NCBI GenBank assembly: GCA_029218445.1 | Contig: JAQXRI010000075.1 | Span: 1 to 57,881 of the forward strand | Source of the DNA: Prevotellaceae bacterium | GTDB taxonomy: Bacteria; Bacteroidota; Bacteroidia; Bacteroidales; Bacteroidaceae | Length of the DNA: 57,881 nucleotides | Direction of reading: 5' to 3' | Part shown: piece after piece, positions 32,414 through 55,052 of the stretch | Layout: each line of letters starts with the position of its first letter | How positions within the stretch are numbered: the first letter of the stretch is position 1 | Made by a program: the position numbers and the translations under genes | Notes under the pieces: model-generated | What the model was told of the DNA's origin: nothing | Database searches by the model: none | Seen by the model: only the letters and a program-made list of their open reading frames with translations

Positions 32414-34642
32414 ATGAGTGACGCATTGTTAAACATAGCTCAATCATTCGCAGAAGAATATTGCAGCAATGCCGTTTATCCTGCTCATCTTTTCAAGGCA
32501 GTATTGCACAAAGATGTCGGGTTGGTGAAGTTTGTCGAGGTAGAACTCGACAAGGACTACTATTATCTTCAGGACTGGGCCGACGTGCAGATGCAGCTTG
32601 CGCCAAGGGCGGTAAGGCCCATGCGCAACCTCGAACTGTCTGACGAGGCGCAGAACGTGATGGACGAAGCCGACGAGTACAAGCTGAAGTTTGGCCTCGA
32701 CGAGACTAATGCCGTGTGCATCTTGGCGGCGTTGGTCACTCCGGGTGTGGGTTTCAGCTTCGACCAGCTGAAGACGCTGCCCCTCACGGCGGCCGAAATC
32801 AGCGAGAAGATGGGCGCTGGGGCAGAGGTCTCTACGCCGTGCTACGAGCCACAGCCGGGCGTTGGCCCCAAGGGCAGCACGTCGGGTGCCGACGCTTACC
32901 TTATAGATAAGGTGAAGCAGGCGCGCGAGGGCAAGATAGGCGTGATAGTGGGTTTTGACAACGAGCTTGAGACGGTGTTTGAAACGCTTGGCAGAAAGTC
33001 GAAGTCCAACCTTCTCATCACGGGCGAAGCCGGTGTGGGAAAGACAGCCCTGCTGGAAGCCTTCGCCACACGCATGGCCAACAACGAGGTGCCCGACTTC
33101 CTGAAGGACGCCGCCGTATTGGAGCTTGACCTTGCGGCAATAAGTGCCGACGCGCAGTATAAGGGCGAGGTGGAAAACCGTTTCAAGAGCGTCCTCCAGG
33201 CCATGAATGAGCGCAGAGGAAGCGGCAGTGCGGTACTCATTATTGAGAGCATCGACAAGCTGTTTGACAAGCAAGGTTCGCTCTACGGATGCTCTTCGAT
33301 GCTGAAGCAGGAGCTTACGCGTGGACAGCTGCAGCTGCTCTCGACGGCCAGCATCGACGGATTTACCAAGAACATTGAAACCGACAAGGAGATGACCAGC
33401 AAGCTGGAGAAGCTCACTGTTGAGGAGCCTTCGGCCGACCTGTGCCTTGAGATACTCAAGGGCGCACTGCCCGCCTACGAGCAGTTCCACAACATAACGA
33501 TAGCCGACGAGGTGATGAGCGACGCCATTCGACTGGCCAAGCGCTATCTGAGCGAGAAAGCACTGCCCGACTCGGCCTTCGACCTTATCGACCGCTCGAT
33601 GGCGGCACTGAAGATAAAGAACAACAAAGAGGCCGACGAGAGCCAGCGACGCTCAGAGCTTGAAACGGCCGACATGGAGGCTGTGGTGGCCAAGCAGACG
33701 GGAATACCTCTTGGCAAGGTGCAGACCTCGGAGCGCGACCGACTGTTGGGTGCTGAAGACACGCTGAAGGCGCGCGTGGTGGGTCAGGACCATGCCATAA
33801 AGAAGGTGCTCGACAGTGTGTTCGAGTCGCGTTCGGGACTTAACAAGAAGGGACAGCCAATGGGTTCGTTCTTCTTCCTCGGCCCTACCGGAACCGGTAA
33901 GACAGAGTTGTCGAAAGCCCTTGCGGCATTCCTCTTCGGCGACGAGTCGGCACTGGTGCGTTTCGACATGTCGGAGTTTAAGGAAGAGCACTCCGTGGCA
34001 TTGCTCTACGGTGCGCCTCCGGGATATGTGGGATATGAGGAAGGTGGACTCTTGGTAAACAAGATACGTCAGAACCCCTATAGCGTAGTGCTGTTCGACG
34101 AGATAGAGAAGGCCCACAAGTCGGTGTTCGACCTCTTCCTTCAGATTCTCGACGAGGGCAAGCTGCACGACCGTCTTGGCCGTGTCGGCGACTTCTCCAA
34201 CGCACTTATACTCTTCACGTCAAACATTGGCAGCCAGTATATAGCCAAGAAGTTCCAGGAAGGCGTCATCCCGACCAACACCGAGATGATGGACATCATG
34301 CAGCAGCACTTCCGTCCTGAGTTCCTTGCCCGACTTACCGAGATTGTTCCGTTCTCGCCCATTACCGAGCAGACGGTTGTCAAGATATTCGACATCCACC
34401 TCAAAGGTCTCTTGAAGCTGCTTGCCGAGCAGGACATGAAGCTCGAAATGGCCCACGAGGTAAAGGCCAACATAGCCATGCGCGGCTTCGACCCACAGTA
34501 TGGCGCACGCCAAATCATCGGCAACATACGCAAATACCTCCGCCACCCGCTGTCGAAGCTGATAATAGCCGGCAAAGTGAAGGGCGGCGACACCATTGTG
34601 GCCAGCCTTGATGGAGATGAGATAAAGTTTGAGGTGAAATAA
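32414..34642 (+). CDS. tssH: T6SS sheath-recycling AAA+ ATPase TssH (ClpV), short form
   Basis: ClpB/ClpV-type double AAA+ unfoldase, 742 residues, which in T6SS disassembles contracted TssBC sheaths. An N-terminal Clp-N-like helical domain spans residues 1-150. D1 has Walker A GEAGVGKT at 204-211, but its Walker B reads VLIIESID (Glu278-Ser279) rather than D-E. D2 has Walker A GPTGTGKT at 490-497, Walker B VVLFDEIE (Asp562-Glu563) and GAPPGYVGYEEGG (pore loop). Between D1 and D2 there are only about 25 residues where ClpB has its long coiled-coil M domain, so that domain is missing. It is the first gene of the T6SS operon, followed by tssB after 77 bp. Confidence 0.92.
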   Translation: MSDALLNIAQSFAEEYCSNAVYPAHLFKAVLHKDVGLVKFVEVELDKDYYYLQDWADVQMQLAPRAVRPMRNLELSDEAQNVMDEADEYKLKFGLDETNAVCILAALVTPGVGFSFDQLKTLPLTAAEISEKMGAGAEVSTPCYEPQPGVGPKGSTSGADAYLIDKVKQAREGKIGVIVGFDNELETVFETLGRKSKSNLLITGEAGVGKTALLEAFATRMANNEVPDFLKDAAVLELDLAAISADAQYKGEVENRFKSVLQAMNERRGSGSAVLIIESIDKLFDKQGSLYGCSSMLKQELTRGQLQLLSTASIDGFTKNIETDKEMTSKLEKLTVEEPSADLCLEILKGALPAYEQFHNITIADEVMSDAIRLAKRYLSEKALPDSAFDLIDRSMAALKIKNNKEADESQRRSELETADMEAVVAKQTGIPLGKVQTSERDRLLGAEDTLKARVVGQDHAIKKVLDSVFESRSGLNKKGQPMGSFFFLGPTGTGKTELSKALAAFLFGDESALVRFDMSEFKEEHSVALLYGAPPGYVGYEEGGLLVNKIRQNPYSVVLFDEIEKAHKSVFDLFLQILDEGKLHDRLGRVGDFSNALILFTSNIGSQYIAKKFQEGVIPTNTEMMDIMQQHFRPEFLARLTEIVPFSPITEQTVVKIFDIHLKGLLKLLAEQDMKLEMAHEVKANIAMRGFDPQYGARQIIGNIRKYLRHPLSKLIIAGKVKGGDTIVASLDGDEIKFEVK

Positions 34643-34719
34643 GGAAGTTAAACCTCCTTACCTTTCTCAAAAAAATAGAAATACATTAATAACAACAATA
34701 ATAAAAAAGCAATAAACTT

Positions 34720-35178
34720 ATGGCAATAAGAGAAAATTTCATCTCTATGGCTCCCGATGAGGAGTCAAGTGCAAAAGTGTCGTTGATTGACAACAACAAG
34801 ACTCTGATGATTGACCAATACACATCAGACGTCGAGCCAGGCAATCCTGAACTGGTAGAGGACATCCGCAACATTAACGATGCCTTTGAGCATTTCAAGC
34901 CAAGTGTTGAGGTTGACTTCATCGACGAGGAAGGCGGCTCAGTAAACGAGAAGCTCCACTTCTCTGAAATTCGCGACTTTGAGGCCAACGGCGGCAAAGG
35001 CCGTCTGGTTGAGAACAGCGCATTCCTCTCGGGCGTGAAGAGCAAGATAGACACCAACGTGAAAATTCGCAAGAGCATCGAGCAAAACCGCAAGCTGCGC
35101 GACATTCTGAAGGAAGCCGGCTCGCGCGCCGAGCTGAAGCAGATGCTCGAAGCTATGTTGGAAGAGTTGGGAGAATAG
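34720..35178 (+). CDS. tssB: T6SS contractile sheath small subunit TssB
   Basis: 152-residue TssB/VipA-type sheath protein. With TssC it forms the cytoplasmic contractile sheath around the Hcp tube. Family features are an N-terminal beta segment (AKVSLIDNNKTLMIDQY), the acidic helix-strand region FKPSVEVDFIDEEGGS, LHFSEIRDFE, and C-terminal helices (LRDILKEAGSRAELKQMLEAM) that include the ClpV-contact region. The N-terminus (MAIRENFISMAPDEESSA) is of the Bacteroidota type. It lies directly ahead of tssC with 26 bp between, the invariant gene pair of T6SS loci. Confidence 0.9.
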   Translation: MAIRENFISMAPDEESSAKVSLIDNNKTLMIDQYTSDVEPGNPELVEDIRNINDAFEHFKPSVEVDFIDEEGGSVNEKLHFSEIRDFEANGGKGRLVENSAFLSGVKSKIDTNVKIRKSIEQNRKLRDILKEAGSRAELKQMLEAMLEELGE

Positions 35179-35204
35179 AATAAAAATTAAAAAAATATAA
35201 GAAA

Positions 35205-36566
35205 ATGGCAGACACAGAAATGCAAAAAGCACCTCAGGCAGCCGTTGAACAACAAGGCGCAGCCCGTGAGGCAAAAGTACAAGATACTTCAAAGCTGTTG
35301 GCTTCGTTTGGCGGCTTCAACGCCATTCGCGGATTCCTTCCCGACGCCGACAACCTCAATCCGGCACGTAAGGCAGCCAAGAACGTGTTCCTTACCGACA
35401 AGCGTTTCGCCGACAAGCGCGAGTCGCTGAAGAAGGATATCAAGGGATGGCTCGCACTGCTCGACGAAGACCACTCTACGGCTACGGAGTTTGCCGAGTC
35501 GTGCAAGGAAAAGGAAGAGAAATACACCAACGTGCTCAAGCAGGGCATTACCGACGCCCTCTACGCCACACAAAACCTTGAGCGTTCTTACCGCGAGCTC
35601 GACTCGTTCTTCAAGACGGCCAACACCGACAAGGTGAAGAACCTGCGCATCATCAACGTGGTGAAGGAAGACATTGCCGACCCCGACTCAGGCTTTGCCG
35701 GCGAAGTTGAAAACCTGCTGCGCAACGGCTTCGACCGCCTCTCGCTGAAAGACTGCTACAGCCTCGTCTGCATTCCTGGCAACGTGTTCCAGGACAAGGT
35801 CACACTGCTGCAGTGGGCTAAGATAGCATTCAAATACAAGGTGATGCTCATAACCGACCATGCCGACGAATACTCGTTTGACGACCTCCAGGCCAACACC
35901 GAGATTTACAAGGACAGCGATGCCGAGCTGCAGAACGTTATCATGACGGCCAACTGGATTGTAGGCCGCGACGCCGAGAAGATGTCGGCCGACGAGGAAG
36001 ACGCCAACGCCTTCTACATCGCACCATCGGCAGCACTCTGCGGAAAGCTCTACGACGAGACGGCCAACATGGCCCAGGGCGCAGGCGGAAAGAAATACGG
36101 TACGATTGACGGCGTGAAGGGCGTGAAGCTCGACCTGCTGAAGAGCGAGATAGCCGCACTGATGGACAATCAGGTAATACCTATGGTATATAGCGAGGGA
36201 CGCGTGATGGCATTCAACAACACCACTCTCTACAACGGCGACAACACCGCTATGAAGGAATACCCCATCGTGCGCGTGTTTGACTGGGTGAAGAAGGTGC
36301 TGATGAACTTCGTTCACGAGGTGGCACTCGAAAACTGGGATCCCTACAACTCTCCAAAGAACCTCAAGGCAAAGATTCAGGCCTTCCTCAACGAGTTTAA
36401 GGGTTATGGCAACCTCTTCCAGAACTATGAGATAAAGGAGCCTACACAAGACCCAATTACCAAGCGCATCACTTGCGACATCAGCCTCACTCCATTCTAT
36501 TCGGCCAAGAACTTCATCATCAAGGTGAGCGCCGACAAGAAGGACAAGGAAGCTGCAATGGCTTGA
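35205..36566 (+). CDS. tssC: T6SS contractile sheath large subunit TssC
   Basis: 453-residue TssC/VipB-type protein. After a disordered N-terminus come LLASFGGFNAIRGFLPDADNLNP and KRFADKRESLKKDIKGWLALLDEDHS. The conserved core follows, with YRELDSFFKTANTDKVKNLRIINVVKEDI, DCYSLVCIPGN, ALCGKLYDETANMAQGAGGKKYG, FNNTTLYNGDNTAMKEYPIVRVFDWVKKVLMNFVHEVALENWDP and a closing ISLTPFYSAKNFIIKVSADK. Together with TssB it builds the sheath whose contraction drives the tube. The gene is followed by a repeat-bearing 143-bp gap with a strong hairpin before the tube genes. Confidence 0.9.
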   Translation: MADTEMQKAPQAAVEQQGAAREAKVQDTSKLLASFGGFNAIRGFLPDADNLNPARKAAKNVFLTDKRFADKRESLKKDIKGWLALLDEDHSTATEFAESCKEKEEKYTNVLKQGITDALYATQNLERSYRELDSFFKTANTDKVKNLRIINVVKEDIADPDSGFAGEVENLLRNGFDRLSLKDCYSLVCIPGNVFQDKVTLLQWAKIAFKYKVMLITDHADEYSFDDLQANTEIYKDSDAELQNVIMTANWIVGRDAEKMSADEEDANAFYIAPSAALCGKLYDETANMAQGAGGKKYGTIDGVKGVKLDLLKSEIAALMDNQVIPMVYSEGRVMAFNNTTLYNGDNTAMKEYPIVRVFDWVKKVLMNFVHEVALENWDPYNSPKNLKAKIQAFLNEFKGYGNLFQNYEIKEPTQDPITKRITCDISLTPFYSAKNFIIKVSADKKDKEAAMA

Positions 36567-36571
36567 TGATT

Positions 36572-36651
36572 TAGTTGACAAGTTGACGAGTTGTTTGCAA
36601 GTTGACTTACATATACCGCTGATTGTGGCGGGCGGACCAATGTGTCCGCCC
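36572..36651 (+). promoter_or_regulatory. Repeat and strong hairpin between tssC and tssD
   Basis: A GTTGAC-type repeat copy (36572-36606) is followed by a perfect hairpin, GGGCGGAC (36630-36637) with loop CAATGT and GTCCGCCC (36644-36651), without a T-run. It could attenuate transcription or stabilise the mRNA between the sheath and tube genes. Confidence 0.5.
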
Positions 36652-36709
36652 CTACAACGGGCGGCTTTTGAAAATTGAATATTTGAAAAAAAATAAACAC
36701 TGACTTACG

Positions 36710-37147
36710 ATGAACATCATCGCCCACCTTCAGTTCGGTGACAACGAAACGCAGCTCTACAGCAAGGAATACCTCGTGGTGAAGTGCCGCACGCATGTAC
36801 ACCGTTCACACAATTCCTTCCACCCCGACAGCGAGCCAACATGCGAAGCCATCGAGGTAACCGTGGTGTCGCCACACAAGGACGACCACTATCTCTACGA
36901 GTGGTATCTTGCCAACCTGAAGTCAAGCGGCTGCCTGCAGTTCGACATCGACGACGTGAGGCGGTCGGGAGGCGAAGTGTGCAAGCGATACCTCTATTTC
37001 GAGGGAGCGCAATGCTTCTCCATACACGAGAACTACGACATACAGAGTTCAAGCCGCCGACTGCTCACTCTCTACATCACCGCCGACCACTTTACGGCCG
37101 ACAATGTGGGCATAGGCAGCGACATGGACGACACTTATTCATTCTGA
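36710..37147 (+). CDS. tssD: T6SS tube protein TssD (Hcp), first copy
   Basis: 145-residue Hcp-like tube protein of the Bacteroidota TssD family. The sequence (IIAHLQFGDNETQLYSKEYLVVKC, RSHNSFHPDSEPTCEAIEVTVVSP, LYEWYLANLKSSGCLQFDI, RYLYFEGAQCFSIHENYD) shows the TssD pattern of a two-sheet barrel with a short helix. Hcp hexamers stack into the inner tube and are also exported. It contains five cysteines, more than I would expect for a tube subunit. The downstream gene encodes a second, divergent TssD. Which one forms the main tube is not clear. Confidence 0.82.
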   Translation: MNIIAHLQFGDNETQLYSKEYLVVKCRTHVHRSHNSFHPDSEPTCEAIEVTVVSPHKDDHYLYEWYLANLKSSGCLQFDIDDVRRSGGEVCKRYLYFEGAQCFSIHENYDIQSSSRRLLTLYITADHFTADNVGIGSDMDDTYSF

Positions 37148-37171
37148 AAAAATATATACAGTTAAGCAATA

Positions 37172-37639
37172 ATGCCAAAATTATCTAACCATACAAAGGC
37201 TGTACTGTTTGACGAGAACATCATCGAACAGAACATTCTCCGACGCGAGAGCGCAAACGTAGTTCAGAGGCTCGACTACACGCTGAGCCGACCGCGCAAC
37301 GACTTCGGCAAGCCCTACGGACGCATGTCGGGCTCAGAGATGGCCATAGTAACACTCATTGGCACCCACGACACAAAGGAATACTACGAGCGCCTTGTGA
37401 GCGACGAGAGCCAGACGTTCTCGCTCGTGTTCAACGCCATCTACGACGAAAACAACATCCTCTGCAGCTTCGACAGCGCAATGGTGGTTGAAGGCTACAT
37501 TGTGGATGTCGTAGAGCTGTATGACAATGATGCGGCAAGCGAAGGCAACCAGATGTCGCTGGAGTTTTCGTTCCTTCTTACGTCGATAACCTATATTGGC
37601 GAAGATGAACGCCATCTGAGGCTCGATTTTGTTAACTGA
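37172..37639 (+). CDS. tssD: T6SS tube protein TssD (Hcp), second copy
   Basis: 155-residue TssD-family protein. Diagnostic stretches are VQRLDYTLSRPRNDFGKPYGRMSGSEMAIVTLIGT, YERLVSDESQTFSLVFNAIYDENN and VEGYIVDVVELYDN. It shares the fold pattern but little direct sequence with the preceding TssD, so the two are old paralogs. It may be a cap or adaptor ring between the tube and VgrG, or a cargo-bearing tube variant; this is inference. It lies 24 bp after the first tssD and 34 bp before the VgrG start. Confidence 0.8.
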   Translation: MPKLSNHTKAVLFDENIIEQNILRRESANVVQRLDYTLSRPRNDFGKPYGRMSGSEMAIVTLIGTHDTKEYYERLVSDESQTFSLVFNAIYDENNILCSFDSAMVVEGYIVDVVELYDNDAASEGNQMSLEFSFLLTSITYIGEDERHLRLDFVN

Positions 37640-37673
37640 CATTTTTTTACCTATAAAATATTCTAATGGTGCA

Positions 37674-40600
37674 ATGAAACATCTTTTAATATTTACTGAT
37701 AACATAAAAAACGGAAGCTACATATCCGAAAAGCTAAAAAGCTTTTACCCCGATACTGACTTAACGGAGGCAAACTTAGTGTTTCCGGAAGGAGCGGCGG
37801 GCGAGGCAGGATATTTGCAGCGCTATGGCGGCGACAACTTCAGCAACTTGGAGTATGTGGCTCTCGGCGACGCCAACAACCCCATATACGTGAGGGAGAA
37901 TAAGGGCGACACCAACAGCATTATGAAGTTTGTCGTCAGCGAAATAAAATATGACAAAAAGTTGTTCCGCCCGGGCGAAATGACCATCAAGATGTCCATC
38001 ACGCCCGACAAGGACGCCAACCTCACCAACAAAGACTATATACAATATATTAAAAAGGTGTTTCTCAACGTCGCTGACGGCAAGGCCAATCCTATAACGG
38101 TGAGCGTAGTGGGAGTGGCAGGCTTTAAAGAACAGACTTTCGAAGGTACGACGATAATAGATTACCAACTGGTGAACATTGCCGTAAAGTATCTCGTGTT
38201 CAGCTTCAACCTGTCGTTAGTAGGTACAACACGCTACGTCACCCTTCAGTGCTACAGTCCCGACAAGAAGCTCGAATTGGGCAAATACAGCAAGGTGTAT
38301 TGCGGCATGCAGTTTGCTGAGGAAATAGTGAAGGGCGAGATGACGTCGCGATTCATGTTCGACAAGTCGCAGATAGAATGCAGCGCCAACCGTCTGCGCA
38401 ACCTCAGAATGGGCAACGAGGAATATGCGAAAATAAAGATTTTAAACGACAGTTCAACAGCCGCTGTGGACAGTACACGCGAGCTGGTGCAGCCTTATCT
38501 CGTGCAGTACAACGAGTCGTTCTACGACTTCATCAGGCGTGTGGCTGTGCGTTGCGGCGAGTTTATGTGCTACCGCGACGGCAAGTTCTGCATAGGACTG
38601 CCAAGCAACATAAAACCCAAAAAACTCACGGGCAAGCAGATTTTCATTTATCCTGACGTGACGATAGAGTCAAACATTGCCCTGACTGTTGACAGTTTTG
38701 CAAGCGACTATACAGAATCGGAGAAGTTGATAGATGAAAGAAACAAGGGTAAGAGCAAAGAAGATTTAGATAAGGAACAGAAAGAAAAGGAAAAGAAACT
38801 CTATTATGTGTCTGACTACGTAGATGACGAACAACAGCACATTCTTTGCAAAAAGAACGACTACGTCGATAGTCGCGCATGTTGGTTTTCTGCAATGGTT
38901 TACGACACAGTGTGCAAGATACTGCCTTCAGCAAAGGATCTTACCGACATTGCCTCCACCGGCGCTGCCTTGGCAAAGGATTTGATTTCAAGAGGCTTAT
39001 TCAAACAATCGTCCGAAAAGAATTTCGACACCCTCGAAACTGTTTATCCAGAGGATATGGGCATCCAGCGCAAGGGGTGGGATGATTTAGGCAAAGATAA
39101 AAAAATGGAGGGATACACCATTCTCGACGAGACAAAGAAGAAATTCCTCAACCAGTTCTATTACAACATAGAGCAGGGTGAGCTTGCCGTGGAGCGTGCC
39201 AAGGTCGATATCAACTTCTCAAGCGAAGTGCCCGACCTCGACCTCACAGATGCCATTGACCTCGACGACGGTATAGCCAACTACTACATCGTAAGCCGAA
39301 TGTATGGCAGTTTCATAAATAACAACAACGGCAAGGGCACCCTGAAAAATCATGCCATTGAGGTGGTACCGACCCTCGACGACAAACTAAAGCCCAATGT
39401 GGCTTCTAAGGACAGCGTAGTGGCACTGCCGCCCCACTGCGGCATCCCACACATACTGAAAGCCACGGCACAAGAGGCCGTGGTGGTTGACACTAAAGAC
39501 CCTCTGCAGATAGGACGAGTAAGGGTGAGGTATCTGTGGCAAATGAACAACAAGGTGTTGTCGCCATGGATTCGCGTCCTCGTACCTTTCACTTGCGGAG
39601 GCGGTGGAATGCTGATGACTCCCGCAGCTCAAGACCATGTGATGATAAACTACACTGGCGGCAACATCGAGCGTCCTTATGTCAGCGGCTTCCTCTACAC
39701 TGCGGAGCGCTTCCCAAACAAGGGAGTGGCCGCAGCCGACAAGCGAATCGACTACAAATACACTCCACGAGCCATAACGTCAGGCAACGGACACTCTATA
39801 ACATTCAATGACGACACACCCAAGTCATTCATGAATTTCCTTATTCCACCGTTGGCGGCATCATGGAATATCGTATCGACTATTGATAAAGGAATAAAAG
39901 ACAAGACACTTGAAAATCTAAAGGAAGAATGCGATAAGGCTGAAGAGGCATATCACGAAAAAGCAAATGAACAGAATCTGCAAAGCTGGAAGACAGCAAA
40001 AGAAAAATATAACAACGAAAAAAAGAACAGCAAATATATTAAAAAGTGGGAGGATGTGACCGCATGCCCACTCAATGGTGGTATAATATTAAAAGATGTC
40101 AACGGATTCTACGAGATAAACATGTCGGCTTCTAAGCGCAACATCAGCATAAAGAGCCCAGTGGGCGACATAAAGATGAATGCGTTTACGGGCATCAGCA
40201 TAAGTGCGCCCAACGGCGACATCAACATCACGGGAAAGAACGTGAACATTAAGGCGGGCAACAACGTCAGCATAACCAGCGGAACCAACATCAAGAAAGA
40301 CAACTCGAAAGACTATCTTGGCACTTGGACAACATTGGGCATAAAGCAATTTGTAACGCAATCAACAAGCCTTTTAGTCGAGGCTGTGAAAGCTGCATCA
40401 CCAGCGGCAAAAGGTGTTTGGGACGAGATGAAGAACTTCACCGACTTGTCGTTCATCCGGAGTTGCTGGGAAATAATCATGCGCCCTGTTGAAGGTACAC
40501 TGACATTACAGTCGAAACGCAACGTTCTCGTAATGGCTGGTGTAGGAAAGGCATGGGTGCCAACGTCACTGTTGTCAAAGGCAGGAACATCTCTGGAATC

Positions 40601-43586: not shown

Positions 43587-43608
43587 AAAATAGAAAGGAA
43601 CACGACTG

Positions 43609-47413: not shown

Positions 47414-47444
47414 GGGTAACAACTTGTCACTAAAAAAAACATTT

Positions 47445-47882
47445 ATGCCACATTTGCTGACACCGCTGCGCATCAATAAAGGCGCATTGAATCATACCGA
47501 CGACATAAAGGAGTCGCTGAACCTCTCAATCGAGTTGCTGCTCAACACGCCACTCGGTTGCGTGCCGTCTGACCCTGAATTCGGCTTTGTGTTCACAGGA
47601 CTGAAGTTTGAGATTTTTGAAGAGAACAACGGCACCATACACACAGAGTCTAACGACCTCACTCCCATATACAAGAAGAAGGTGTCCGGCTCGTCGAAAA
47701 ACATCCAGACCTTTGCGTCGGAACTCAACGAAACCATACGCCAATATGAGCCGCGACTGCGCGACACGGCTACCGTAATGACCTACATACGCGAGAAAAA
47801 GGAAATACTCGTGGCCGTGAGAGGCGTAATCCTCGCCACCCTCGAGCCTTACGAATATCGGACGTCGATAAAAGTATGGTAG
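47445..47882 (+). CDS. tssE: T6SS baseplate protein TssE (gp25-like)
   Basis: 145-residue gp25-like protein. The ATG at 47445 is preferred over an upstream TTG. The family pattern is clear: SLNLSIELLLNTPLGCVPSDPEFGF (I-x-x-L-L-N-T-x-x-G-x-x-x-x-x-P-x-(Y/F)G), then ELNETIRQYEPRLRDTATV (the E-P-R sheath-contact motif). TssE/gp25 initiates sheath polymerisation at the baseplate. It follows tssK by 31 bp. The gap to tssF (47883-47965) carries an ATTAAAAATTAAAG string like that before ychF. Confidence 0.9.
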   Translation: MPHLLTPLRINKGALNHTDDIKESLNLSIELLLNTPLGCVPSDPEFGFVFTGLKFEIFEENNGTIHTESNDLTPIYKKKVSGSSKNIQTFASELNETIRQYEPRLRDTATVMTYIREKKEILVAVRGVILATLEPYEYRTSIKVW

Positions 47883-47965
47883 GGGAAAAAGAATTAAAAA
47901 TTAAAGTTCGTTTGAGGAGTTAAGACGTTTGTTTGACGGCTGACAATTCCGAAAAAATATATATT

Positions 47966-49681
47966 ATGAAACAAAACATATTTGAGATACAGCAACGCAC
48001 GGATGACCTTATTGTCCAGGCAATGGAGATATGGAAACGCAGCGACATGAGCGAGCAATTGGAAGGGCTGGACACCGACCCCGTCTTCCGACTCATCATG
48101 TCAACGCTTGCATATCAGGCCAACGAGCACGACGCCAACCTCGAACAGCTGAAGACCGAAATACTTCAGGAGTTTGAGCAGCAGTTGGTGTTCGACGATG
48201 CAGGAAAGGCTCTGCCCGCCACGGCTGTGATAAAGACTGCACTCAACCGCAACATCAGCGCCACCAATGTTGACTCGAAGAATGTGTTCTATTTGGGTGC
48301 CGACAACCGCTATCCCTTCGAGCCTCTGCTCTCCACACGCGTGTTTAACGTCACAGTGAAGAACATCTCGCAGCTCGACGGCCGCCGATGGCTCGTGAGC
48401 CTCGACTTCGGCAACTTCCCCGTCAACAACCTCAAGGGCTTCGCCTTTGTCGTGACCAACCCGATGTTCCACGACGTCAGCGCCTCAATAGCCGACAACG
48501 GCATGGAACTGCCGCTCATTGCGCCATGGGACTATGCCAATCTGCCCATGTCCAACCACTTCTCGCTCGACAACATCGTTTACAACCGAAGCTGCGGCCA
48601 CAGCGGTCTTGGAGGCATGGAGTCGTTTACCGACTACTGCGCCATGGACCTCTTTGCACGTCAGGACGTGAGATACTTTGTGGTTGACGAGATGGAAAAC
48701 TTTGACGACAGTACACGGCTCGACATACTGTTTGAGTTTGAAGGCCTTTCGCATGGCTTCATCTTCAACAGCGACACGTTCCACATCAACACCATCATCC
48801 TCGCCAACGTAGGCCACTACACTGTAACGCTGTCGAGGACAGCGCCAATAGCGCGCCTTGCCGGCAACCTTGGCAACAACACCCGCAGCAAGCAGTTTGT
48901 ACAGCTGCTGCGCCCAAGCGTCGAGCAGCTCTACTCCGACAGCGAGATAATGATACGCCGCTTGGGAGCCGACCGCTTCAACCAAGGCCGACTGACAAAG
49001 CTGCTGTTCAACCTCTACACGAAATACACTTCCGACCTTTATGCTTTCCAAAATGTGGGCATGAAGAACAACGACGCCGTAATGTCGTCGATAAGAAAAG
49101 CCATTGCCGAACTCAACAACATGGTGAGGGGCAATGCGATAGTGTCGGAAGGCGTTTATGCAGTGCTGAAGAACAAGGAAAACATCGACACCTCGCTCGA
49201 ACTCGACTATCTTGCCACCGACGGAACAGCCGTAAACACACTGCTGAAAAAGGAGGCGAAGTTCACCATGTCGCATGAGTTTGACCCCGACATGACGGTG
49301 CAGATATGCGAACCGTCGGAAGGCATCGACGAACTTCACGACCAGCAGGCACTGAAACAGCTCAAACGCTACGCCTTAGCCACAGGCGGACGCATAGTGA
49401 CCGAGAACGACATAAAACTCTTCTGCCAAACTGAACTGATGTCGCGCTTCGGAGTGGTTCACGACCTGATAAAGTCGATAAGACTGAAGCGTCAGCACCG
49501 CAGTGAAGGCACGTTCCACACCTACGAGATATTCGTTAAGATAACCCTTACAAGCAACATCTACACCCAACGCGCCTTTGCCGCAAAGGAAACCTCAGTG
49601 GAAACTTATCTGCAGAAGATGATTGAGGTGAGAATGATGGGCATCTATCCCGTTAGGGTGCAGTTGATTTTGGAGGATTAG
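47966..49681 (+). CDS. tssF: T6SS baseplate subunit TssF
   Basis: 571 residues. The start at 47966 is chosen for its simple N-terminus (MKQNIFEIQQRTDDLIVQAM). TssF-like features are EGLDTDPVFRLIMSTLAYQANEHDANLEQLKTEI (the helical start where baseplate TssF proteins state their D-P-x-x-x-x-L-I-E segment) and a large beta-rich centre. The C-terminal gp6/J-like domain reads ALKQLKRYALATGGRIVTENDIKLFCQTEL ... YEIFVKITLTSN ... IGIYPVRVQL-type ending. The protein forms the baseplate wedge with TssG. It is followed by a 101-bp gap and the ubiquitin-like gene. Confidence 0.78.
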   Translation: MKQNIFEIQQRTDDLIVQAMEIWKRSDMSEQLEGLDTDPVFRLIMSTLAYQANEHDANLEQLKTEILQEFEQQLVFDDAGKALPATAVIKTALNRNISATNVDSKNVFYLGADNRYPFEPLLSTRVFNVTVKNISQLDGRRWLVSLDFGNFPVNNLKGFAFVVTNPMFHDVSASIADNGMELPLIAPWDYANLPMSNHFSLDNIVYNRSCGHSGLGGMESFTDYCAMDLFARQDVRYFVVDEMENFDDSTRLDILFEFEGLSHGFIFNSDTFHINTIILANVGHYTVTLSRTAPIARLAGNLGNNTRSKQFVQLLRPSVEQLYSDSEIMIRRLGADRFNQGRLTKLLFNLYTKYTSDLYAFQNVGMKNNDAVMSSIRKAIAELNNMVRGNAIVSEGVYAVLKNKENIDTSLELDYLATDGTAVNTLLKKEAKFTMSHEFDPDMTVQICEPSEGIDELHDQQALKQLKRYALATGGRIVTENDIKLFCQTELMSRFGVVHDLIKSIRLKRQHRSEGTFHTYEIFVKITLTSNIYTQRAFAAKETSVETYLQKMIEVRMMGIYPVRVQLILED

Positions 49682-49782: not shown

Positions 49783-50100
49783 ATGGACGATTTTTTTATT
49801 AATATAGTTTATAAGGACAAGCATGTGAAGTTTCGCATTGCAAACCCCATGTCGCCATTGGGCACTCTGATGAACAATCTGAGGCACAGTGTGGGTCAGG
49901 ACGGAAGGCTGATATTCGACTTCCCGTCGGTTGACTCCACAGGTGCGCCACTCGACTATTTCTTCGGAAAGGAAGATCCTGAGGTGCATGAGATTAGGGT
50001 GATGCGTCCGCGAATAGGACGCACCGAACAAACCTTGGCCGACTATAACGTGAAAAATGGTGATACAGTATTCCTCGTGCCCGACCCCTTCCCAGGTTAA
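49783..50100 (+). CDS. Ubiquitin-like modifier with exposed C-terminal glycine
   Basis: 105-residue beta-grasp protein. The layout follows ubiquitin: beta hairpin (FFINIVYKDKHVKFRI), helix (PLGTLMNNLRHSV), beta strand (GRLIFDF, compare RLIFAG in ubiquitin), an inserted loop of ~35 residues, and RTEQTLADYNVKNGDTVFLV, directly comparable to RTLSDYNIQKESTLHLV. The chain ends VPDPFPG and a stop, so the terminal glycine needs no trimming. It could be adenylated by the E1-like enzyme of the same operon and passed to the E2-like protein, whose gene overlaps its 3' end by 44 nt. A structural role as in the YukD/EsaB ubiquitin-fold proteins of type VII secretion is the alternative. Confidence 0.85.
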   Translation: MDDFFINIVYKDKHVKFRIANPMSPLGTLMNNLRHSVGQDGRLIFDFPSVDSTGAPLDYFFGKEDPEVHEIRVMRPRIGRTEQTLADYNVKNGDTVFLVPDPFPG

Positions 50101-50617
50101 GGGCCGCCAGCGGCGGCTGCTGAGCGAATGGACGGAGATTGTCGAAAGGCTTTCCGGGCGCAGCGACATCACTGTCAGGGTGGGGCGCACCAACCAGGCC
50201 GCACTGCCTACGGAGTACGTCGTGAAATACGACATACGAAGCATTTGCGGCATCGACGCCTCTGGAATGCCACTGTTTGCGCCATGCTTCACCATGAAGA
50301 TAACGCTTCCGCCCGACTATCCGCAAATCGACGCTCCACCTGAGTTCCGCTTTGTAGAAGCCGACGGTTCACGCCATCTGCCTTGGCACCCCAACATACG
50401 CTACTATGGCGACATGGCCGGACGAGTGTGCCTCAACAGGCTCAACACCTTCACAAGCATCGCTTGGGGCATTGAGCGGGTGGCCATGTATCTGAGATAC
50501 GAACTCTACCACGCACTGCCTACACCACCTTATCCCGAAGACCTGAAAGTGGCCGAATGGGTGAGAAAGCAGGGCGAACCAAACGAATGGATATTTTTTG
50601 ATCAAGACAACAGATGA
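50057..50617 (+). CDS. E2-like ubiquitin-conjugating enzyme
   Basis: 186 residues with the UBC fold pattern. An N-terminal helix (RRLLSEWTEIVERLSG) leads to four strands including YVVKYDIRSICGI and CFTMKITLPPDYPQIDAPPEFRFVEADGS (compare the F-P-x-x-Y-P-x-x-x-P-P signature). The active-site segment is WHPNIRYYGDMAGRVCLNRL, with HPN at 111-113 and candidate catalytic Cys125. WGIERVAMYLRYELYHALPTPPYPEDLKVAEW follows as the usual W-x-(h)x(3)-L-x-x-h helix and tail. The distance from HPN to Cys is a few residues longer than in eukaryotic E2s. The only good start is ATG 50057 (GTG 50060 alternative), inside the ubiquitin-like gene. It overlaps the next gene by 4 nt. Confidence 0.88.
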   Translation: MVIQYSSCPTPSQVKGRQRRLLSEWTEIVERLSGRSDITVRVGRTNQAALPTEYVVKYDIRSICGIDASGMPLFAPCFTMKITLPPDYPQIDAPPEFRFVEADGSRHLPWHPNIRYYGDMAGRVCLNRLNTFTSIAWGIERVAMYLRYELYHALPTPPYPEDLKVAEWVRKQGEPNEWIFFDQDNR

Positions 50618-51831
50618 GACATATATTGACATTACTATTGCTTGTGATGGCAGCATGCGGCAAGGCCAATGCGCAGCAGGCAAGGGAACAACAGACAAAG
50701 GAAGCCGTAGTGGCCGACCAAAGCCTCTACGAGGACATCGTCAACATACCCTTCGACGACAAGGGGCTTGACCTTGTGCTCCACCTCACTTTCGACGAGA
50801 ACAACAACGAGCTTACAATGTCGCTCGTAGGTTCGCGTCAGCTGCTGGTGTTCCTGCAGGACATACAGCGCAAGAAGGTGTTCACTGGCTTCTGGAGTCG
50901 CCGCAAGTTCCGTCCTGAGCGTCTTCCCTACGCCACCCTCATCGAGCCAAAGACAAAGTATAAGCTCACCACACCTGTTGTCAAGTCGTTCAGCAAGCCG
51001 CGCACTAAGCACTTGTTTAACAAGTGGATAACCAACATCTCGCCCTCGCTCACGCTGAAGGAGCAAGGCGTCAGCCAGCTCACTCCCGACTCGATAGTGC
51101 TGAAGTTCAGCGTCGATGCCGAGGCTACCAAGGCATCGTTCACGCTGCGCAACATTCTTGTGCTCGAACCCAAGGAAGAACAGGCCGTGGCGGCAATGAA
51201 GCGCAACAAGGGAAAGACGATACACTACAGGTTTGTGCTCGACCACGACCTCGCCACAACCTACAATGTCAGCATCAAGCGCAATCCGTGTTTCGCCATG
51301 CAGCCTGTCACCGACAGCATCAACCGCCGCGTGGCCGCTATACGCAACTCCTACAGGCGGCTGCTGAAGTCGTGCCCCACGGGCAAGGCCACAAGCCAAA
51401 CCGAGGTGAACATCTTCAACCAGCACCGCCAGTACCTGCTGGCGCAGTATTCACCCATTGCCGACTCGACAAAGTGCAGCACACTGATGCAGGCCTACAA
51501 TGCCTACAACCACTACATCGACTCAATAGCCAATGCACCCTGCATCTACATCCCCGTTGACAACAGCCCGCAGGCCATTTCTTCGAGCATAGGCGTGAGC
51601 GAAGAAACCTTGCTCTCGGCGGCAAAGCGTCTTGACGACATAGTGTCAAGCATAATGGTGTCGCACGACAAGACGGAGATAAGAGACCTGCGCAACCTTG
51701 GCCGCGACATCATACGCGTGGTCAACGCCAACGTGTCGGGCAAGAGGCTCCGCGACGAGTCGCAGCGCAAGGCCTTCGCCATATTCAGAAAAGCTGAAGA
51801 GTATTTCTATTCCGTAACAATGAAACTATGA
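50614..51831 (+). CDS. Exported T6SS-cluster protein of unknown function
   Basis: 405 residues with an N-terminal export signal (MRHILTLLLLVMAACGKANAQ). It could be cut by signal peptidase I after ANA, or lipidated at Cys15 in MAAC. The mature part begins with a beta-rich domain (DLVLHLTFDENNNELTMSLVGSRQLLVFLQ) and SLTLKEQGVSQLTPDSIVLKFSVDAEATKASFTLRNILVLEPKE. It continues as a helical domain (RRVAAIRNSYRRLLKSC, KRLDDIVSSIMVSHDKTEIRDLRNLGRDIIRVVNANVSG). No family is recognised. With 4-nt overlaps on both sides it is coupled to the E2-like gene and to the large membrane protein. It is a good candidate for a periplasmic or outer-membrane part of the trans-envelope complex, replacing TssJ. Confidence 0.75.
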   Translation: MRHILTLLLLVMAACGKANAQQAREQQTKEAVVADQSLYEDIVNIPFDDKGLDLVLHLTFDENNNELTMSLVGSRQLLVFLQDIQRKKVFTGFWSRRKFRPERLPYATLIEPKTKYKLTTPVVKSFSKPRTKHLFNKWITNISPSLTLKEQGVSQLTPDSIVLKFSVDAEATKASFTLRNILVLEPKEEQAVAAMKRNKGKTIHYRFVLDHDLATTYNVSIKRNPCFAMQPVTDSINRRVAAIRNSYRRLLKSCPTGKATSQTEVNIFNQHRQYLLAQYSPIADSTKCSTLMQAYNAYNHYIDSIANAPCIYIPVDNSPQAISSSIGVSEETLLSAAKRLDDIVSSIMVSHDKTEIRDLRNLGRDIIRVVNANVSGKRLRDESQRKAFAIFRKAEEYFYSVTMKL

Positions 51832-54800
51832 GAAGAAAACTGTTCATATACACAGTGTTGCAGCTTGCCTGCTTAGTCGTCTTTGCCGTCGCGCCACAGC
51901 CTGCCTTTGCCGACAGCGAAGAGGAGGACGACGTGGAGGCGGAAGGAACCGGCCAGCAAGGCTCTCAAGAGAGTATGGTTGACGAGGTGGTGCTCGTGGA
52001 GATTTCGGGTGTGATGGAGGGTTACATCAGCGAACTCAACTCCATAGCGTCGGCCATACCAAAGTCGAAGAACGCCAAGATAGCCATGCTCAACCAAAAG
52101 CTCACCAGCGTCAACGTGAGATGGGACGCCTACTCAAAGCTGACGGAGGCTGAAATATCGCAGAGTGAGGTGCTGCTCGAACTGGTGTCGCAGTTCAAGA
52201 GCATGTCGCAGGCCGTTGCCGACTCGTTGGCCAAACAAAAGGAGAGGGCCGACGCCATGGTCAATTTCGAGAAGTTTGAGAAAGCACTGCCGTCGTTCAT
52301 AAAGAAATACGACAAACTCTACAAGCAGGCCACCGAGTTCTCGCTCATACCGCAGACGGCGCAGCAGTTGGCAAGGGTGAAAACCGAGGAACAGCTGCTC
52401 ACGCAAGACCTCGACGCACAGTTTGCCGAAGCCAAAAACGCCGCACAGCTCGTGCCGCAGTTGAAAGGGCAGATGCACAAGGTCAACGAGAAATACATGA
52501 GCCTGAAGGAAAAGTCGGAGGCCATACAGGCGGCCGAATACAAGCCGCTGATAGAACGAGTGAAGGACTATATACTCACTTTTGCGGGAGTGGCCATCAT
52601 ACTGATGTTCATTACCATGGTGCAGAGCAAAATAAAGGAAATGAAGGCGGCCAGGGAGGCGGCCAAACAATACAAAGAGATGATGATGAAAAACAACAAC
52701 GAGATACCCACAATATGCCTCGTCATGTTTGCAATGCTGCTGACGGCATGTGAGTCGAGGGTGAAAAACGTGATGACGCAGGTGACGCCTGAGTCGGACG
52801 GCATGGAGATAACGTCGGTGAAAGTGTCGGACGATTGCCGCACGTTGGAGCTTAGGGCAAGAATCAACGGCGAGACAGAGCAGGCCGACCTTGCCGACTC
52901 GTCGCTCTACAACATCGAGGTAAAGGAGTTCAGAAAGAACCTCATTCCTTGTTCAAAGGAGGTTTATCCAAAGTTTGTGTCAATAAAGAGCATTGGAGCC
53001 GAGCAGGTGTGGAAGCGCGGACTGGTGATGCACGTCTTGATCGACCTCACCCAGCCGGTGAAGGTAATGTCGCAGCAGCGCGAGATGGTGATGACGATAA
53101 AGAAGCTGTTCTGCCACGACAACCTCTTCCTCACGTTCATGCTCTCCGAGGGAAAGATATCGCCCACCATGGCGGCCACCGACTATGTCATAAACAACTA
53201 TATCTCGCCGCAGTCGCCGCTGCGTTCAAGCATTTACGACAAGGACGGCGAAGTGCAGCCGCCTTACGTCTATGCCTCCGTGTCGGAAATGCTCGACCGC
53301 CTGTCGGCGGACAACGACACTGTAAGCAGCATGGCCAACTACAAGCTGCTGATGCTCTTCACCGACGGCGTCGTGTACGACGAGGACGACTACCCCTTCG
53401 ACCCCAACCACTTTGCCATGCAGGAACGTCTGATACGCCAGGCACGCTCGCTGCCCGAAAACATCTCGGTGTTCTATCTTGACCTCATTGCCAACGAAGA
53501 CAACGAAATCAACGAGAACAACATGCTGAGAATGGTGTGTCAGAACACCAACGGCAAGAGCCTCTCGTCGGTGAACCCCGCCGTGCTTGACGACCTCATT
53601 CTCTCGTCGTTCAACATCGAATACGACGACTACATCATAACGCTGCGCAACCCCGAGGAGAAATACTACTTTGGCGACATGCGCTATGTCAACGTCATCT
53701 TCAAGAACATGAACGACAGCCTCGCGGTCTCGGCCTTCGGCAAATACTCCATAGCCGACATCCACAGCCCCAAGCACATTGGCGACCGCCCGCTTGCCAG
53801 CATAGCCATCGAGGGCATTCTGATGGGGCTGTTGGTCATGCTCGTTTGTTACGTTGCCATGCAGATAGTGTGGCCTTTCGTCAGCTATGTGCTCTTCCGC
53901 CGCCAGTATGTGATGAAATACACCGGGCCCAACATGAGCGTTGACAACATCATGGTTCCCGGCGAGTGCTATCTGTGCAAGGCTCCATTCGTGCTTGGCG
54001 ACCGGATAGTGGTGAAGTGCAAGCACGTCACCCACGCCGACTGCTGGGACGAGAACGGCCACCGCTGTCCCGAGCACGGCATTCACTGTCCTGAAGGCTC
54101 CCACTACTACAACCAGTCAAACATATTCGACATCCGCAACGCCAGCTTCTACATGAAGTGGATATTGCTTGCCATCTTGGTGTCGGTGTTGAGCTGGTCG
54201 TGCTACGTGCTGTTCCACCACACGATTCTTTACAACGTGCTGAATGCGCTTGCGGGCATCGACGAGCCCATCTCGGCGCGTCTCTACCATCTGCCCGTTT
54301 TCGGCCTCTACATATCGTTCTTCCTTACCATCGTGTTCTCGACGCTCACCATCCACCGCAGGCAATGGTATCTCATGGTGGCCGAAATAGTGTGCCGCGC
54401 GATGGTTACAGGAGTGCTGGCGCTGCTGTTCTTCGCCCTTGAGTGCGGCATTGTCAATGTGGGCGAGCTGTATGACGGAACCGTGATATTCGACTTCATC
54501 CCTTGGACCTTGTCGGCCGTGGCCATCGCCCTCTGCTCGACGTGGCGCACCCGACTGCGCCCTCAAAAGCGCCACCTGCTCTACTCGTTGGGAGTGGGCT
54601 GTGCAAGCACGCTGATATGGGGAGTGTTCTGCGAAATGGAAAACGTCACGCAGATGGTGCTCATGCTCCTTGCCTACATAGCCTTCGGAGTGGGCATTGC
54701 CGTGAGCATTGCCAAAGACATGCCGCGCAGCGAACATTATTTCCTGCGCGTGTCGGGACCTATAAAGGAAATGGACATCGCACTCTACAAATGGCTGCGA

Positions 54801-55052
54801 ACGTCGCCCAACACGGTGGTGACAATAGGAAAGTCTATCAACTGCATGTTGCAGATTACGTGGGACTTGCAGAGCGACATCGCCCCGGAGCAGGCCGAGA
54901 TAAAGTTAGTGGGCGGTGTGCCGCGACTGTATGCTGTTGATGGCGATGTGTATGTGGGCAACAAGGTTATGCCTGTCGGCAGCAGCAAGACGCTGTATCA
55001 CGGCGACAAATTCCAGATAGGATTGACTCATTTCTGCTATCTCGAAACTTAG
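51828..55052 (+). CDS. Membrane protein with VWA-like, RING-H2-like and FHA-like domains
   Basis: 1074 residues. Signal peptide 1-29 is followed by an acidic linker, a helical periplasmic part (about 48-240), TM about 248-268, and a second hydrophobic stretch at 294-307 ending LLTAC (Cys308). A VWA-like domain lies at about 400-560 (VLIDLTQP with Asp406; LFTDG with Asp513; MIDAS degenerate). TM about 655-690 leads to a Cys/His cluster C714-x2-C717-x13-C731-x-H733-x2-H736-x2-C739-x7-C747-x2-H750 (or C754), of RING-H2 type. Five or six TMs (778-965) follow, then an FHA-like domain (985-1074; TVVTIGKSINCMLQI, QAEIKL, LYHGDKFQIG). The topology puts RING and FHA in the cytosol and VWA in the periplasm. 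It is probably the membrane anchor and E3-like component. Confidence 0.85.
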   Translation: MRRKLFIYTVLQLACLVVFAVAPQPAFADSEEEDDVEAEGTGQQGSQESMVDEVVLVEISGVMEGYISELNSIASAIPKSKNAKIAMLNQKLTSVNVRWDAYSKLTEAEISQSEVLLELVSQFKSMSQAVADSLAKQKERADAMVNFEKFEKALPSFIKKYDKLYKQATEFSLIPQTAQQLARVKTEEQLLTQDLDAQFAEAKNAAQLVPQLKGQMHKVNEKYMSLKEKSEAIQAAEYKPLIERVKDYILTFAGVAIILMFITMVQSKIKEMKAAREAAKQYKEMMMKNNNEIPTICLVMFAMLLTACESRVKNVMTQVTPESDGMEITSVKVSDDCRTLELRARINGETEQADLADSSLYNIEVKEFRKNLIPCSKEVYPKFVSIKSIGAEQVWKRGLVMHVLIDLTQPVKVMSQQREMVMTIKKLFCHDNLFLTFMLSEGKISPTMAATDYVINNYISPQSPLRSSIYDKDGEVQPPYVYASVSEMLDRLSADNDTVSSMANYKLLMLFTDGVVYDEDDYPFDPNHFAMQERLIRQARSLPENISVFYLDLIANEDNEINENNMLRMVCQNTNGKSLSSVNPAVLDDLILSSFNIEYDDYIITLRNPEEKYYFGDMRYVNVIFKNMNDSLAVSAFGKYSIADIHSPKHIGDRPLASIAIEGILMGLLVMLVCYVAMQIVWPFVSYVLFRRQYVMKYTGPNMSVDNIMVPGECYLCKAPFVLGDRIVVKCKHVTHADCWDENGHRCPEHGIHCPEGSHYYNQSNIFDIRNASFYMKWILLAILVSVLSWSCYVLFHHTILYNVLNALAGIDEPISARLYHLPVFGLYISFFLTIVFSTLTIHRRQWYLMVAEIVCRAMVTGVLALLFFALECGIVNVGELYDGTVIFDFIPWTLSAVAIALCSTWRTRLRPQKRHLLYSLGVGCASTLIWGVFCEMENVTQMVLMLLAYIAFGVGIAVSIAKDMPRSEHYFLRVSGPIKEMDIALYKWLRTSPNTVVTIGKSINCMLQITWDLQSDIAPEQAEIKLVGGVPRLYAVDGDVYVGNKVMPVGSSKTLYHGDKFQIGLTHFCYLET

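What the first reader, a model, noticed from the sequence alone, without database searches (positions are those of the whole stretch)
32414..55052. T6SS operon with a built-in E1-Ubl-E2-RING conjugation set
The sequence shows sheath, tube, spike and baseplate genes interleaved on one strand with a ThiF/E1-like enzyme (44332), a ubiquitin-like protein ending in Gly (49783), an E2-like protein with HPN and Cys (50057) and a membrane protein with a RING-H2-like cluster (51828). The interleaving (E1 between spike and baseplate genes, Ubl/E2 after tssF) argues against chance neighbourhood. Bacterial E1/E2/Ubl operons are known, notably in antiphage defence (Bil- and Bub-type systems), but I know of no described case that is an integral part of a T6SS. 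The inference is that protein modification controls assembly, firing or cargo of the injection machine.
Basis: partly seen in the sequence, partly recalled or inferred. Interest (0 to 1): 0.95.

Follow-up and report, generated by a model that had tools for sequence, protein, structure and literature searches.

The report
Injection machine with own ubiquitin system
The operon for a syringe-like injection machine in a Bacteroidales bacterium also encodes relatives of the ubiquitin tag, its activating and conjugating enzymes and a membrane RING protein, which are predicted to attach the tag to proteins and so likely control when the machine assembles or fires.

Summary
A type VI secretion (T6SS) operon at 32414-55052 contains an E1 (44332), a ubiquitin-like protein ending in Gly (49783), an HPN/Cys E2 (50057) and a membrane RING protein (51828). 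Ubl and E2 models are confident beta-grasp and UBC folds. Nearest solved relatives by profile are ubiquitin, UBA7/UBA6/UBA1 and UBE2K. E1 and E2 catalytic positions are invariant in the 15 and 19 compared. The link is conserved: in 393 Bacteroidales genomes all 5 solid Ubl hits lie within 15 kb of TssC; in 201 family genomes all 6 E2-positive ones carry TssC. Ten canonical T6SS stretches show none of the four genes. Two things go beyond the finding. A sister architecture adds a membrane JAMM protease (nearest solved relative Rpn11). Two genomes outside the order carry a related set, with a degenerate RING, on the contig of an extracellular contractile injection system (eCIS). I read it as a ubiquitin-type relay built into contractile injection machines. 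Conjugation and its target are untested. The set is rare across the phylum (1 of 25 TssC genomes), the window's clade lacks JAMM, and 5 of 11 family genomes with the same sheath group lack E2.

The parts
32414..34642 (+). tssH/ClpV-like AAA ATPase, first gene of the operon
   Evidence: PF07724 2.2e-59, PF10431 5.6e-18; tssH profile in T6SS loci
34720..35178 (+). TssB-like sheath protein
   Evidence: T6SS_VipA 0.16 only; its profile scores in canonical T6SS loci next to tssC
35205..36566 (+). TssC sheath protein of the divergent group
   Evidence: PF17541 3.2e-105; 353.6 bits against 745-759 for the five highest family genomes
36710..37639 (+). two Hcp/TssD-like tube proteins (36710-37147, 37172-37639)
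   Evidence: PF17642 9.7e-09 and 0.055
37680..41756 (+). VgrG spike
   Evidence: PF04717 3.1e-14
41781..44310 (+). two proteins of unknown function (601 aa and 233 aa)
   Evidence: No Pfam family over its cut-off. 601 aa homologues in L002, L003, L057, L060; 233 aa homologues in L002, L003, L006, L060; the 233 aa profile also scores 158 bits in L019, an architecture II genome
44332..45405 (+). E1 (ThiF fold) with ATP site, zinc ligands and invariant C168
   Evidence: PF00899 6.8e-53; PDB best UBA7 2.2e-37; 13 of 13 tested positions kept in 15 of 15 E1s
45418..46200 (+). TssG-position baseplate gene, directly after E1
   Evidence: Its profile scores in canonical T6SS loci; named by position
46190..47413 (+). 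TssK baseplate protein
   Evidence: T6SS_VasE 0.0014 and NCBIfam TssK 3e-09, both below cut-off
47424..47882 (+). TssE/gp25 baseplate protein
   Evidence: PF04965 1.1e-08
47933..49681 (+). TssF-position baseplate gene
   Evidence: Its profile scores in canonical T6SS loci; named by position, no T6SS model hit
49783..50100 (+). Ubl, 105 aa, C-terminus PFPG
   Evidence: 120 of 120 listed homologues end in P[FI]PG; AF2 pLDDT 92.5; PDB profile best ubiquitin
50057..50617 (+). E2 with HPN and Cys125
50614..51831 (+). 405 aa protein with a signal-peptide-like start (by eye), unknown function, between E2 and the RING genes in architecture I
   Evidence: Homologues in L001-L007, L057, L060; no Pfam family
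51828..52685 (+). N-terminal part of the fused ORF: signal-like start and one TM; a separate gene in L001-L007
   Evidence: five other fused homologues of 1069-1080 aa among 120 listed
52686..55052 (+). Membrane RING protein: lipobox-like segment, vWA-like region, TM, RING (C714 C717 C731 H733 H736 C739 C747 C754), about six TMs, FHA-like C-terminus
   Evidence: VWA passes its Pfam cut-off in L021 and L042, FHA in L042, neither in the window

Best explanation
This T6SS operon encodes a ubiquitin-type relay by homology - E1, Ubl ending in Gly, E2 and membrane RING - that is predicted to attach the Ubl to a part of the injection machine at the inner membrane and so likely to control its assembly or firing. 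Shown by sequence: the four genes sit among sheath, spike and baseplate genes; their catalytic and metal-binding positions are kept across the T6SS loci compared; in the surveys they occur only with contractile machines. Shown by model: Ubl is beta-grasp and E2 is a UBC fold. Inferred steps: the E1 adenylates the Ubl C-terminal Gly and takes it on C168; the charge passes to E2 Cys125; the RING protein, placed in the inner membrane with a periplasmic vWA-like region and cytosolic RING and FHA regions, senses the envelope and recruits charged E2 to the tail assembly site; a lysine of a baseplate, tube or spike protein is modified. In the sister architecture a membrane JAMM protease would remove the tag. 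The layout recalls the T6SS threonine phosphorylation switch, in which the kinase PpkA carries a sensor vWA domain and its target Fha1 an FHA domain; here ligation would replace phosphorylation.
For: Gene order and interleaving. E1, E2, Ubl and RING identities. Catalytic positions kept: E1 13 of 13 in 15 of 15, E2 HPN and Cys in 19 of 19; RING pattern in 120 of 120 listed homologues and eight ligands in 15 of 15 T6SS-type RING proteins; Ubl terminal Gly in 120 of 120 listed. Co-occurrence; ten canonical stretches without the set. E1, E2, Ubl and RING distances track TssG- and TssK-gene distances across 12 genomes, r 0.80-0.90, each at the floor of 999 permutations. JAMM protease in 6 of 6 complete architecture II loci, nearest solved relative Rpn11 2.2e-11. 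A related set on an eCIS contig in 2 genomes. PpkA vWA and Fha1 FHA switch: PMC3224232 passages.
Against: No conjugate, activity or target is shown. The set is rare: E2 in 1 of 25 TssC genomes of the phylum sample, Ubl in 5 of 18 in the order sample, E2 in 6 of 16 in the family sample, and 5 of 11 family genomes with the divergent TssC have no E2, so the machine can do without it. The window and its architecture I relatives show no JAMM gene. In the window the vWA metal motif is not found and the FHA-like region has GK and Q where the eCIS relative has GR and RH; neither domain passes Pfam there. The eCIS RING-like region keeps only 3 Cys of the 8 ligand positions in that alignment. Membrane topology is from hydropathy only. 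Ubls of L009 and G550 end two residues past the Gly. Across 12 genomes the Ubl is not the best conserved part: median identity 39 percent against 44 for E1 and 43 for E2.
Confidence: 0.58

Rival explanations
1. The relay tags cargo rather than the machine: the Ubl is attached to effectors or the spike before loading, as a sorting or safety tag, and is removed or carried along on firing.
For: In G456 the set lies beside eCIS_core-domain cargo genes and a PAAR gene by Pfam, with similar-looking genes in G550; in architecture II the Ubl and E2 genes follow the vgrG region, where cargo genes often sit (recalled).
Against: In architecture I the E1 sits among baseplate genes and Ubl/E2 right after the tssF-position gene, not beside a recognised cargo gene.
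Confidence: 0.2
2. The relay targets proteins outside the machine, such as phage structural proteins (as in Bil) or cell proteins, and is only co-inherited with T6SS.
For: Bacterial Ubl systems are known in antiphage defence; a review says Bil attaches its Ubl to the phage central tail fibre (PMC12948488 passages). E1 matches PADLOC E1-E2 models in the ThiF region, best 2.3e-21.
Against: No E2, Ubl or RING match in PADLOC at E 0.01; interleaving with baseplate genes and distance tracking with TssG and TssK; every solid hit in three overlapping surveys lies in a genome with a contractile machine, on the same contig in all but G785, where E2 shares its contig with baseplate genes.
Confidence: 0.1
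3. The Ubl and E2 are scaffolds: the beta-grasp protein docks the baseplate to the membrane, as proposed for the TssN Ub-like domain, and no covalent conjugation takes place.
For: TssN carries a Ub-like domain proposed to dock the baseplate (PMC10781749 passages); TssN is not found in the 5 Ub-carrying genomes tested; the EccD5 Ub-like domain is among the top structural matches.
Against: E1 and E2 catalytic positions and the Ubl Gly are kept; JAMM proteases are present in relatives.
Confidence: 0.08

Closest known systems
Tri-ligase Ubl systems of bacteria (Iyer 2006, PMC1779556; Burroughs 2011, not held; FtsH-ternary systems, PMC7159879)
   Same: E1, E2, Ubl, prokaryotic RING and JAB encoded together; PMC7159879 passages describe JAB, E1, RING and a Ubl-E2 protein in one operon.
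   Different: There with vWA-MoxR/FtsH conflict systems; here inside T6SS or on an eCIS contig, with Ubl and E2 on separate genes and a multi-pass RING membrane protein with vWA-like and FHA-like regions. Iyer type 6d E2-like proteins lack the classical His (passages); here HPN is kept.
Bil and Bub antiphage systems
   Same: Bacterial E1, E2 and Ubl set (recalled). Two bacterial Ubl structures, 8tyx and 8tyz, whose system the call does not name, are among the Foldseek hits.
   Different: E1 profile matches Citrobacter BubCD far more weakly (7.7e-11) than UBA7 (2.2e-37). Gene contents of Bil and Bub are recalled; the one primary paper I asked for was not held.
Bacteroidota T6SS-iii, including architectures GA1-3 (PMC10781749, PMC4714493)
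   Same: PF17541 TssC with Hcp, VgrG, baseplate and ClpV-like genes.
   Different: Ten canonical stretches show no E1/E2/Ubl/RING; the 5 Ub-carrying genomes tested show no TssN.
T6SS threonine phosphorylation pathway (PpkA, PppA, Fha1)
   Same: Post-translational switch with a sensor vWA and an FHA domain (PMC3224232 passages).
   Different: No kinase among the 17 scanned window T6SS-operon proteins; ligase parts instead.
Extracellular contractile injection systems
   Same: G456 and G550 carry E1-Ubl-E2-JAMM-RING-like genes on the contig of an eCIS; sheath match to E2 distance about 23 kb and 46 kb. In G456 Pfam names tape measure, gp25, spike, tube, sheath C-terminus, PAAR and eCIS_core genes.
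   Different: The RING-like region there has lost most zinc ligands; the window machine is a T6SS.
Crinalium plasmid E1-E2-JAB set (L010)
   Same: E1 32 percent identical over the alignment; E2 and Mov34/JAB annotated beside it.
   Different: E1 scores 229 bits against 424-426 for the eCIS E1s with the T6SS E1 profile; its E2 and one of its small proteins gave no meaningful alignment with the window's; no T6SS gene is annotated in the stretch shown.

Membership tests
Ubiquitin-type conjugation system | E1 with ATP site and catalytic Cys | tested here: met
   13 of 13 positions, C168 included, in 15 of 15; that C168 is the catalytic Cys is by recalled comparison
Ubiquitin-type conjugation system | E2 with UBC fold, HPN and catalytic Cys | tested here: met
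Ubiquitin-type conjugation system | Beta-grasp modifier with C-terminal Gly | tested here: met
   terminal in 15 of 16 loci
Ubiquitin-type conjugation system | RING E3 with eight zinc ligands | tested here: met
   120 of 120 listed homologues fit the pattern; 15 of 15 T6SS-type proteins, 0 of 2 eCIS ones
Ubiquitin-type conjugation system | Covalent Ubl-substrate product | not testable with these tools
   Needs biochemistry
Tri-ligase Ubl systems with JAB | JAB/JAMM protease in the locus | tested here: not met
   Not found in the window or the architecture I loci scanned; present in 6 of 6 complete architecture II loci and 2 of 2 eCIS loci
Bil or Bub systems | Family-specific sequence relationship | tested here: inconclusive
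   BubCD 7.7e-11 in the profile search; E1 matches PADLOC E1-E2 models, E2 and Ubl match none at E 0.01
Bacteroidota T6SS-iii | TssC of PF17541 with tube, spike and baseplate genes | tested here: met
Bacteroidota T6SS-iii | TssN membrane complex core | tested here: inconclusive
   PF17555: 0 of 5 Ub-carrying genomes, 0 of 1 (G258), 7 of 11 canonical genomes; the model misses some canonical ones
T6SS threonine phosphorylation pathway | Ser/Thr kinase and phosphatase pair | tested here: not met
   No kinase or phosphatase family among the 17 scanned window T6SS-operon proteins (for the first only the best 25 of 50 AAA-type families are shown); elsewhere in the genome not tested
Prok-RING_1 | Pfam score over the curated cut-off | tested here: not met
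   14.3 bits against 29.1 in the window; 17.1 in L021

The most novel reading that the evidence does not exclude
Contractile injection machines of Bacteroidota, both T6SS and eCIS, carry a ubiquitin system of their own whose parts resemble the eukaryotic ones most: an E1 nearest UBA7/UBA1, an E2 nearest UBE2K, a tag nearest ubiquitin and, in some, an eraser nearest Rpn11, run from a membrane vWA-RING-FHA platform. It is a new, reversible class of control for injection machines in which ligation takes the place of the phosphorylation switch.
Probability: 0.45. Interest if true: 0.95.

Novelty: new variant of a known kind. Interest (0 to 1): 0.88.

Why it matters
Bacterial ubiquitin-like ligation has been tied mainly to defence. 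A set built into injection machines would give a tractable case in which the likely client is a defined nanomachine, and would open a testable question: what replaces the phosphorylation switch and the TssN membrane complex in these T6SS. It would also add an E1-E2-RING-Ubl-JAMM set whose parts look most like the eukaryotic ones to the record of how ubiquitin systems arose.

Tried and rejected
Antiphage island by chance neighbourhood: judged unlikely from co-occurrence and interleaving. Assembly error behind the fused RING ORF: unlikely, five other fused homologues of 1069-1080 aa. Weak Ubl hit in G049 (5.8e-4, in a 424 aa frame, no TssC): dropped as chance before counting. Homology between the architecture I TM gene and the architecture II JAMM membrane protein: no support by profile comparison, so I do not claim that the window lost a JAMM domain from that gene. 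Own-genome JAMM search empty; the tool notes that an empty answer alone shows nothing, and the genome is 86.85 percent complete. RING-protein profile against the PDB: no match at E 0.01. E1 against plasmids: 301 records matched, 20 listed, none covering 80 percent of the E1; only the Crinalium one was opened. The TssC fragment in G273 was put in neither sheath group. Of the 11 canonical TssC genomes of the order sample, stretches of 9 were fetched (10 loci, 6 to 20 kb each); G239 and G270 were not. Locus L050 and L051 were fetched and not analysed.
Full report
Observation. The window is C75:1-57881 of a genome that is 86.85 percent complete. On the + strand from 32414 to 55052 lie ClpV-like, TssB-like, TssC, two Hcp-like, VgrG, two unknown genes, E1, TssG-position, TssK, TssE, TssF-position, Ubl, E2, an unknown 405 aa protein and the RING ORF. 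Of nine upstream proteins scanned, seven have Pfam families and look like housekeeping, surface or secreted proteins (MutS, a leucyl-tRNA synthetase domain, YchF, PorZ, a C10 peptidase, a glycosyltransferase, an acyltransferase).

Conservation. Of the 560 Ubl homologues found, the 120 listed all end in P[FI]PG; of 458 E2 homologues, the 120 listed all have HPN. Across loci, 13 E1 positions are kept in 15 of 15 E1s, HPN and Cys in 19 of 19 E2s, and the Gly is terminal in 15 of 16 T6SS-type Ubls, L009 ending PGAK. The eCIS Ubls end LVPG and LVPGGK. Against six close loci (L001-L003, L005-L007) the window Ubl is 67-75 percent identical and the four baseplate genes 27-46 percent. Over 12 more diverse genomes this does not hold: median Ubl identity is 39 percent, below E1 (44) and E2 (43), though above the RING protein (26), TssG (24) and TssK (22).

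Co-occurrence. In 393 Bacteroidales genomes the Ubl profile hits 6; one (G049, 5.8e-4) was dropped as chance; the other 5 have TssC within about 15 kb on the same contig. TssC is in 18 of 393. In 201 family genomes E2 hits 6 and TssC 16; all 6 E2 genomes have TssC, on the same contig in 5; in G785 they lie on separate contigs, and its E2 contig holds the tssG, K, E and F genes. The 5 family genomes with canonical TssC (745 bits or more) have no E2; of the 11 with divergent TssC (441 bits or less) 6 have it. In 395 phylum genomes E2 hits 3, the window genome and two without PF17541 TssC, and TssC hits 25, of which only the window genome has E2. The three samples overlap. A separate scan gave 9 loci, one of them (L008) apparently the same contig as in G178 by length and matches. 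Counting distinct genomes outside the eCIS type, 17 carry the E2; 13 have all four genes on the stretches read and 4 (L004, L005, L007, G242) are cut by contig ends, L004 and L007 showing no T6SS structural gene. Controls: 10 canonical T6SS stretches of 6-20 kb from 9 genomes have none of the four at E 1e-3. Against the reading, about 40 kb around TssC in each of G258, G972 and G944 shows none of the four.

Architectures. Architecture I (window, L001-L003, L006, G785, G810, and by its remains L004, L005, L007): E1-tssG-K-E-F-Ubl-E2-405 aa-TM gene-RING. Architecture II (G178, L009, G388, G046, G889, G898): Ubl-E2, then a membrane JAMM protein, RING, E1 and tssG onward; in G388, G046, G178, G889 and G898 this follows the vgrG region. 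The JAMM profile and motif hit 6 of 6 complete architecture II loci; JAB passes its Pfam cut-off in L022 and L009 and not in L021 or L018 (L061 and L064 were not scanned with Pfam). The family profile, built from four T6SS and one eCIS domain, finds Rpn11 at 2.2e-11. It finds nothing in the window or in L001-L007 and L057-L060 up to E 10.

eCIS link. G456 and G550 carry E1-Ubl-E2-JAMM-(vWA/RING-like/FHA) after an NTPase gene (nSTAND1 by Pfam in G456) on the contig of an eCIS; the sheath match lies about 23 kb and 46 kb from the E2. In G456 Pfam finds tape measure, gp25, spike OB domain, tube and sheath C-terminal domain over cut-off, plus PAAR and eCIS_core cargo; G550 has the matching gene run. 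The sheath PF04984 match is just under cut-off in G456 and over it in G550. In G456 JAB is 34.0 bits (cut-off 22.5), FHA 34.3 (20.7) and VWA_2 32.4 (27). The RING-like region keeps Cys at 3 of the 8 ligand positions. The E1s score 424-426 bits with the T6SS E1 profile against 229 for the Crinalium plasmid E1.

Mechanism. Hydropathy suggests a TM before the RING and about six TMs between RING and the FHA-like C-terminus, so RING and FHA would be cytosolic and the vWA-like region periplasmic; this is inference. VWA passes its cut-off in L021 and G456 but not in the window. PMC3224232 (passages) describes PpkA with an extracellular vWA sensor domain and Fha1 phosphorylation recruiting T6SS parts to the inner membrane. 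TssN, the proposed membrane-complex core of T6SS-iii (PMC10781749, passages), is found in 0 of 5 Ub-carrying genomes and 7 of 11 canonical ones, so the RING protein may stand at the place of a membrane platform; G258, with the divergent TssC and no Ub set nearby, also lacks a TssN match, and the model's limited reach keeps this tentative.

Co-inheritance. Across 12 genomes the distance matrices of E1, E2, Ubl and RING correlate with those of the TssG-position gene and TssK, r 0.80-0.90, each at the floor of 999 permutations. Shared ancestry of the hosts contributes to this.

Literature. Searches in an open-licence library without preprints listed no paper whose title or abstract start describes a Ubl-ligation set in a T6SS or eCIS. 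Several of these lists were capped (20 of 33, 20 of 139, 25 of 3,495, 15 of 1,269, 12 of 33). Passages were read in PMC10781749, PMC3482391, PMC1779556, PMC7159879, PMC4714493, PMC11354881, PMC3224232, PMC12948488 and PMC8616854; none was read whole. The main text of PMC4714493 has no word starting with ubiquitin, ThiF, RING, FHA or von Willebrand. Burroughs 2011, the most likely place for an earlier listing, was not held and is known to me only by recall and citation. Novelty is therefore stated for these searches only.

None of these changed an odds figure.

Noticed in passing
window 55189-57879: A second VgrG-like ORF follows the RING gene and runs to the end of the contig.
   Followed up: no
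window 51828-55052: The TM gene and the RING gene are fused in frame here, separate in L001-L007; five other fused homologues of 1069-1080 aa exist among 120 listed.
   Followed up: partly
L026-L027 (G258), L065-L066 (G972), L067-L068 (G944): T6SS loci with the same divergent TssC group but no Ub set within about 40 kb; G258 also shows no TssN, so its membrane complex is unclear.
   Followed up: partly
L041 15837-17561 and L043 15726-17498: An NTPase gene (nSTAND1 by Pfam in L041) lies directly before the E1 of the eCIS-linked set.
   Followed up: no
L010 9950-15168: A Crinalium plasmid carries E1, two small proteins, an annotated E2 and a Mov34/JAB gene next to a type IV conjugative-transfer gene.
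   Followed up: partly
window 41781-44310: Two unknown proteins (601 and 233 aa) lie between VgrG and E1; homologues are mostly in architecture I loci.
   Followed up: no
L009 9291-9596 and the G550 Ubl (L043-L044 junction): These Ubls end two residues past the Gly, in loci that have a JAMM protease, which hints at C-terminal processing.
   Followed up: partly
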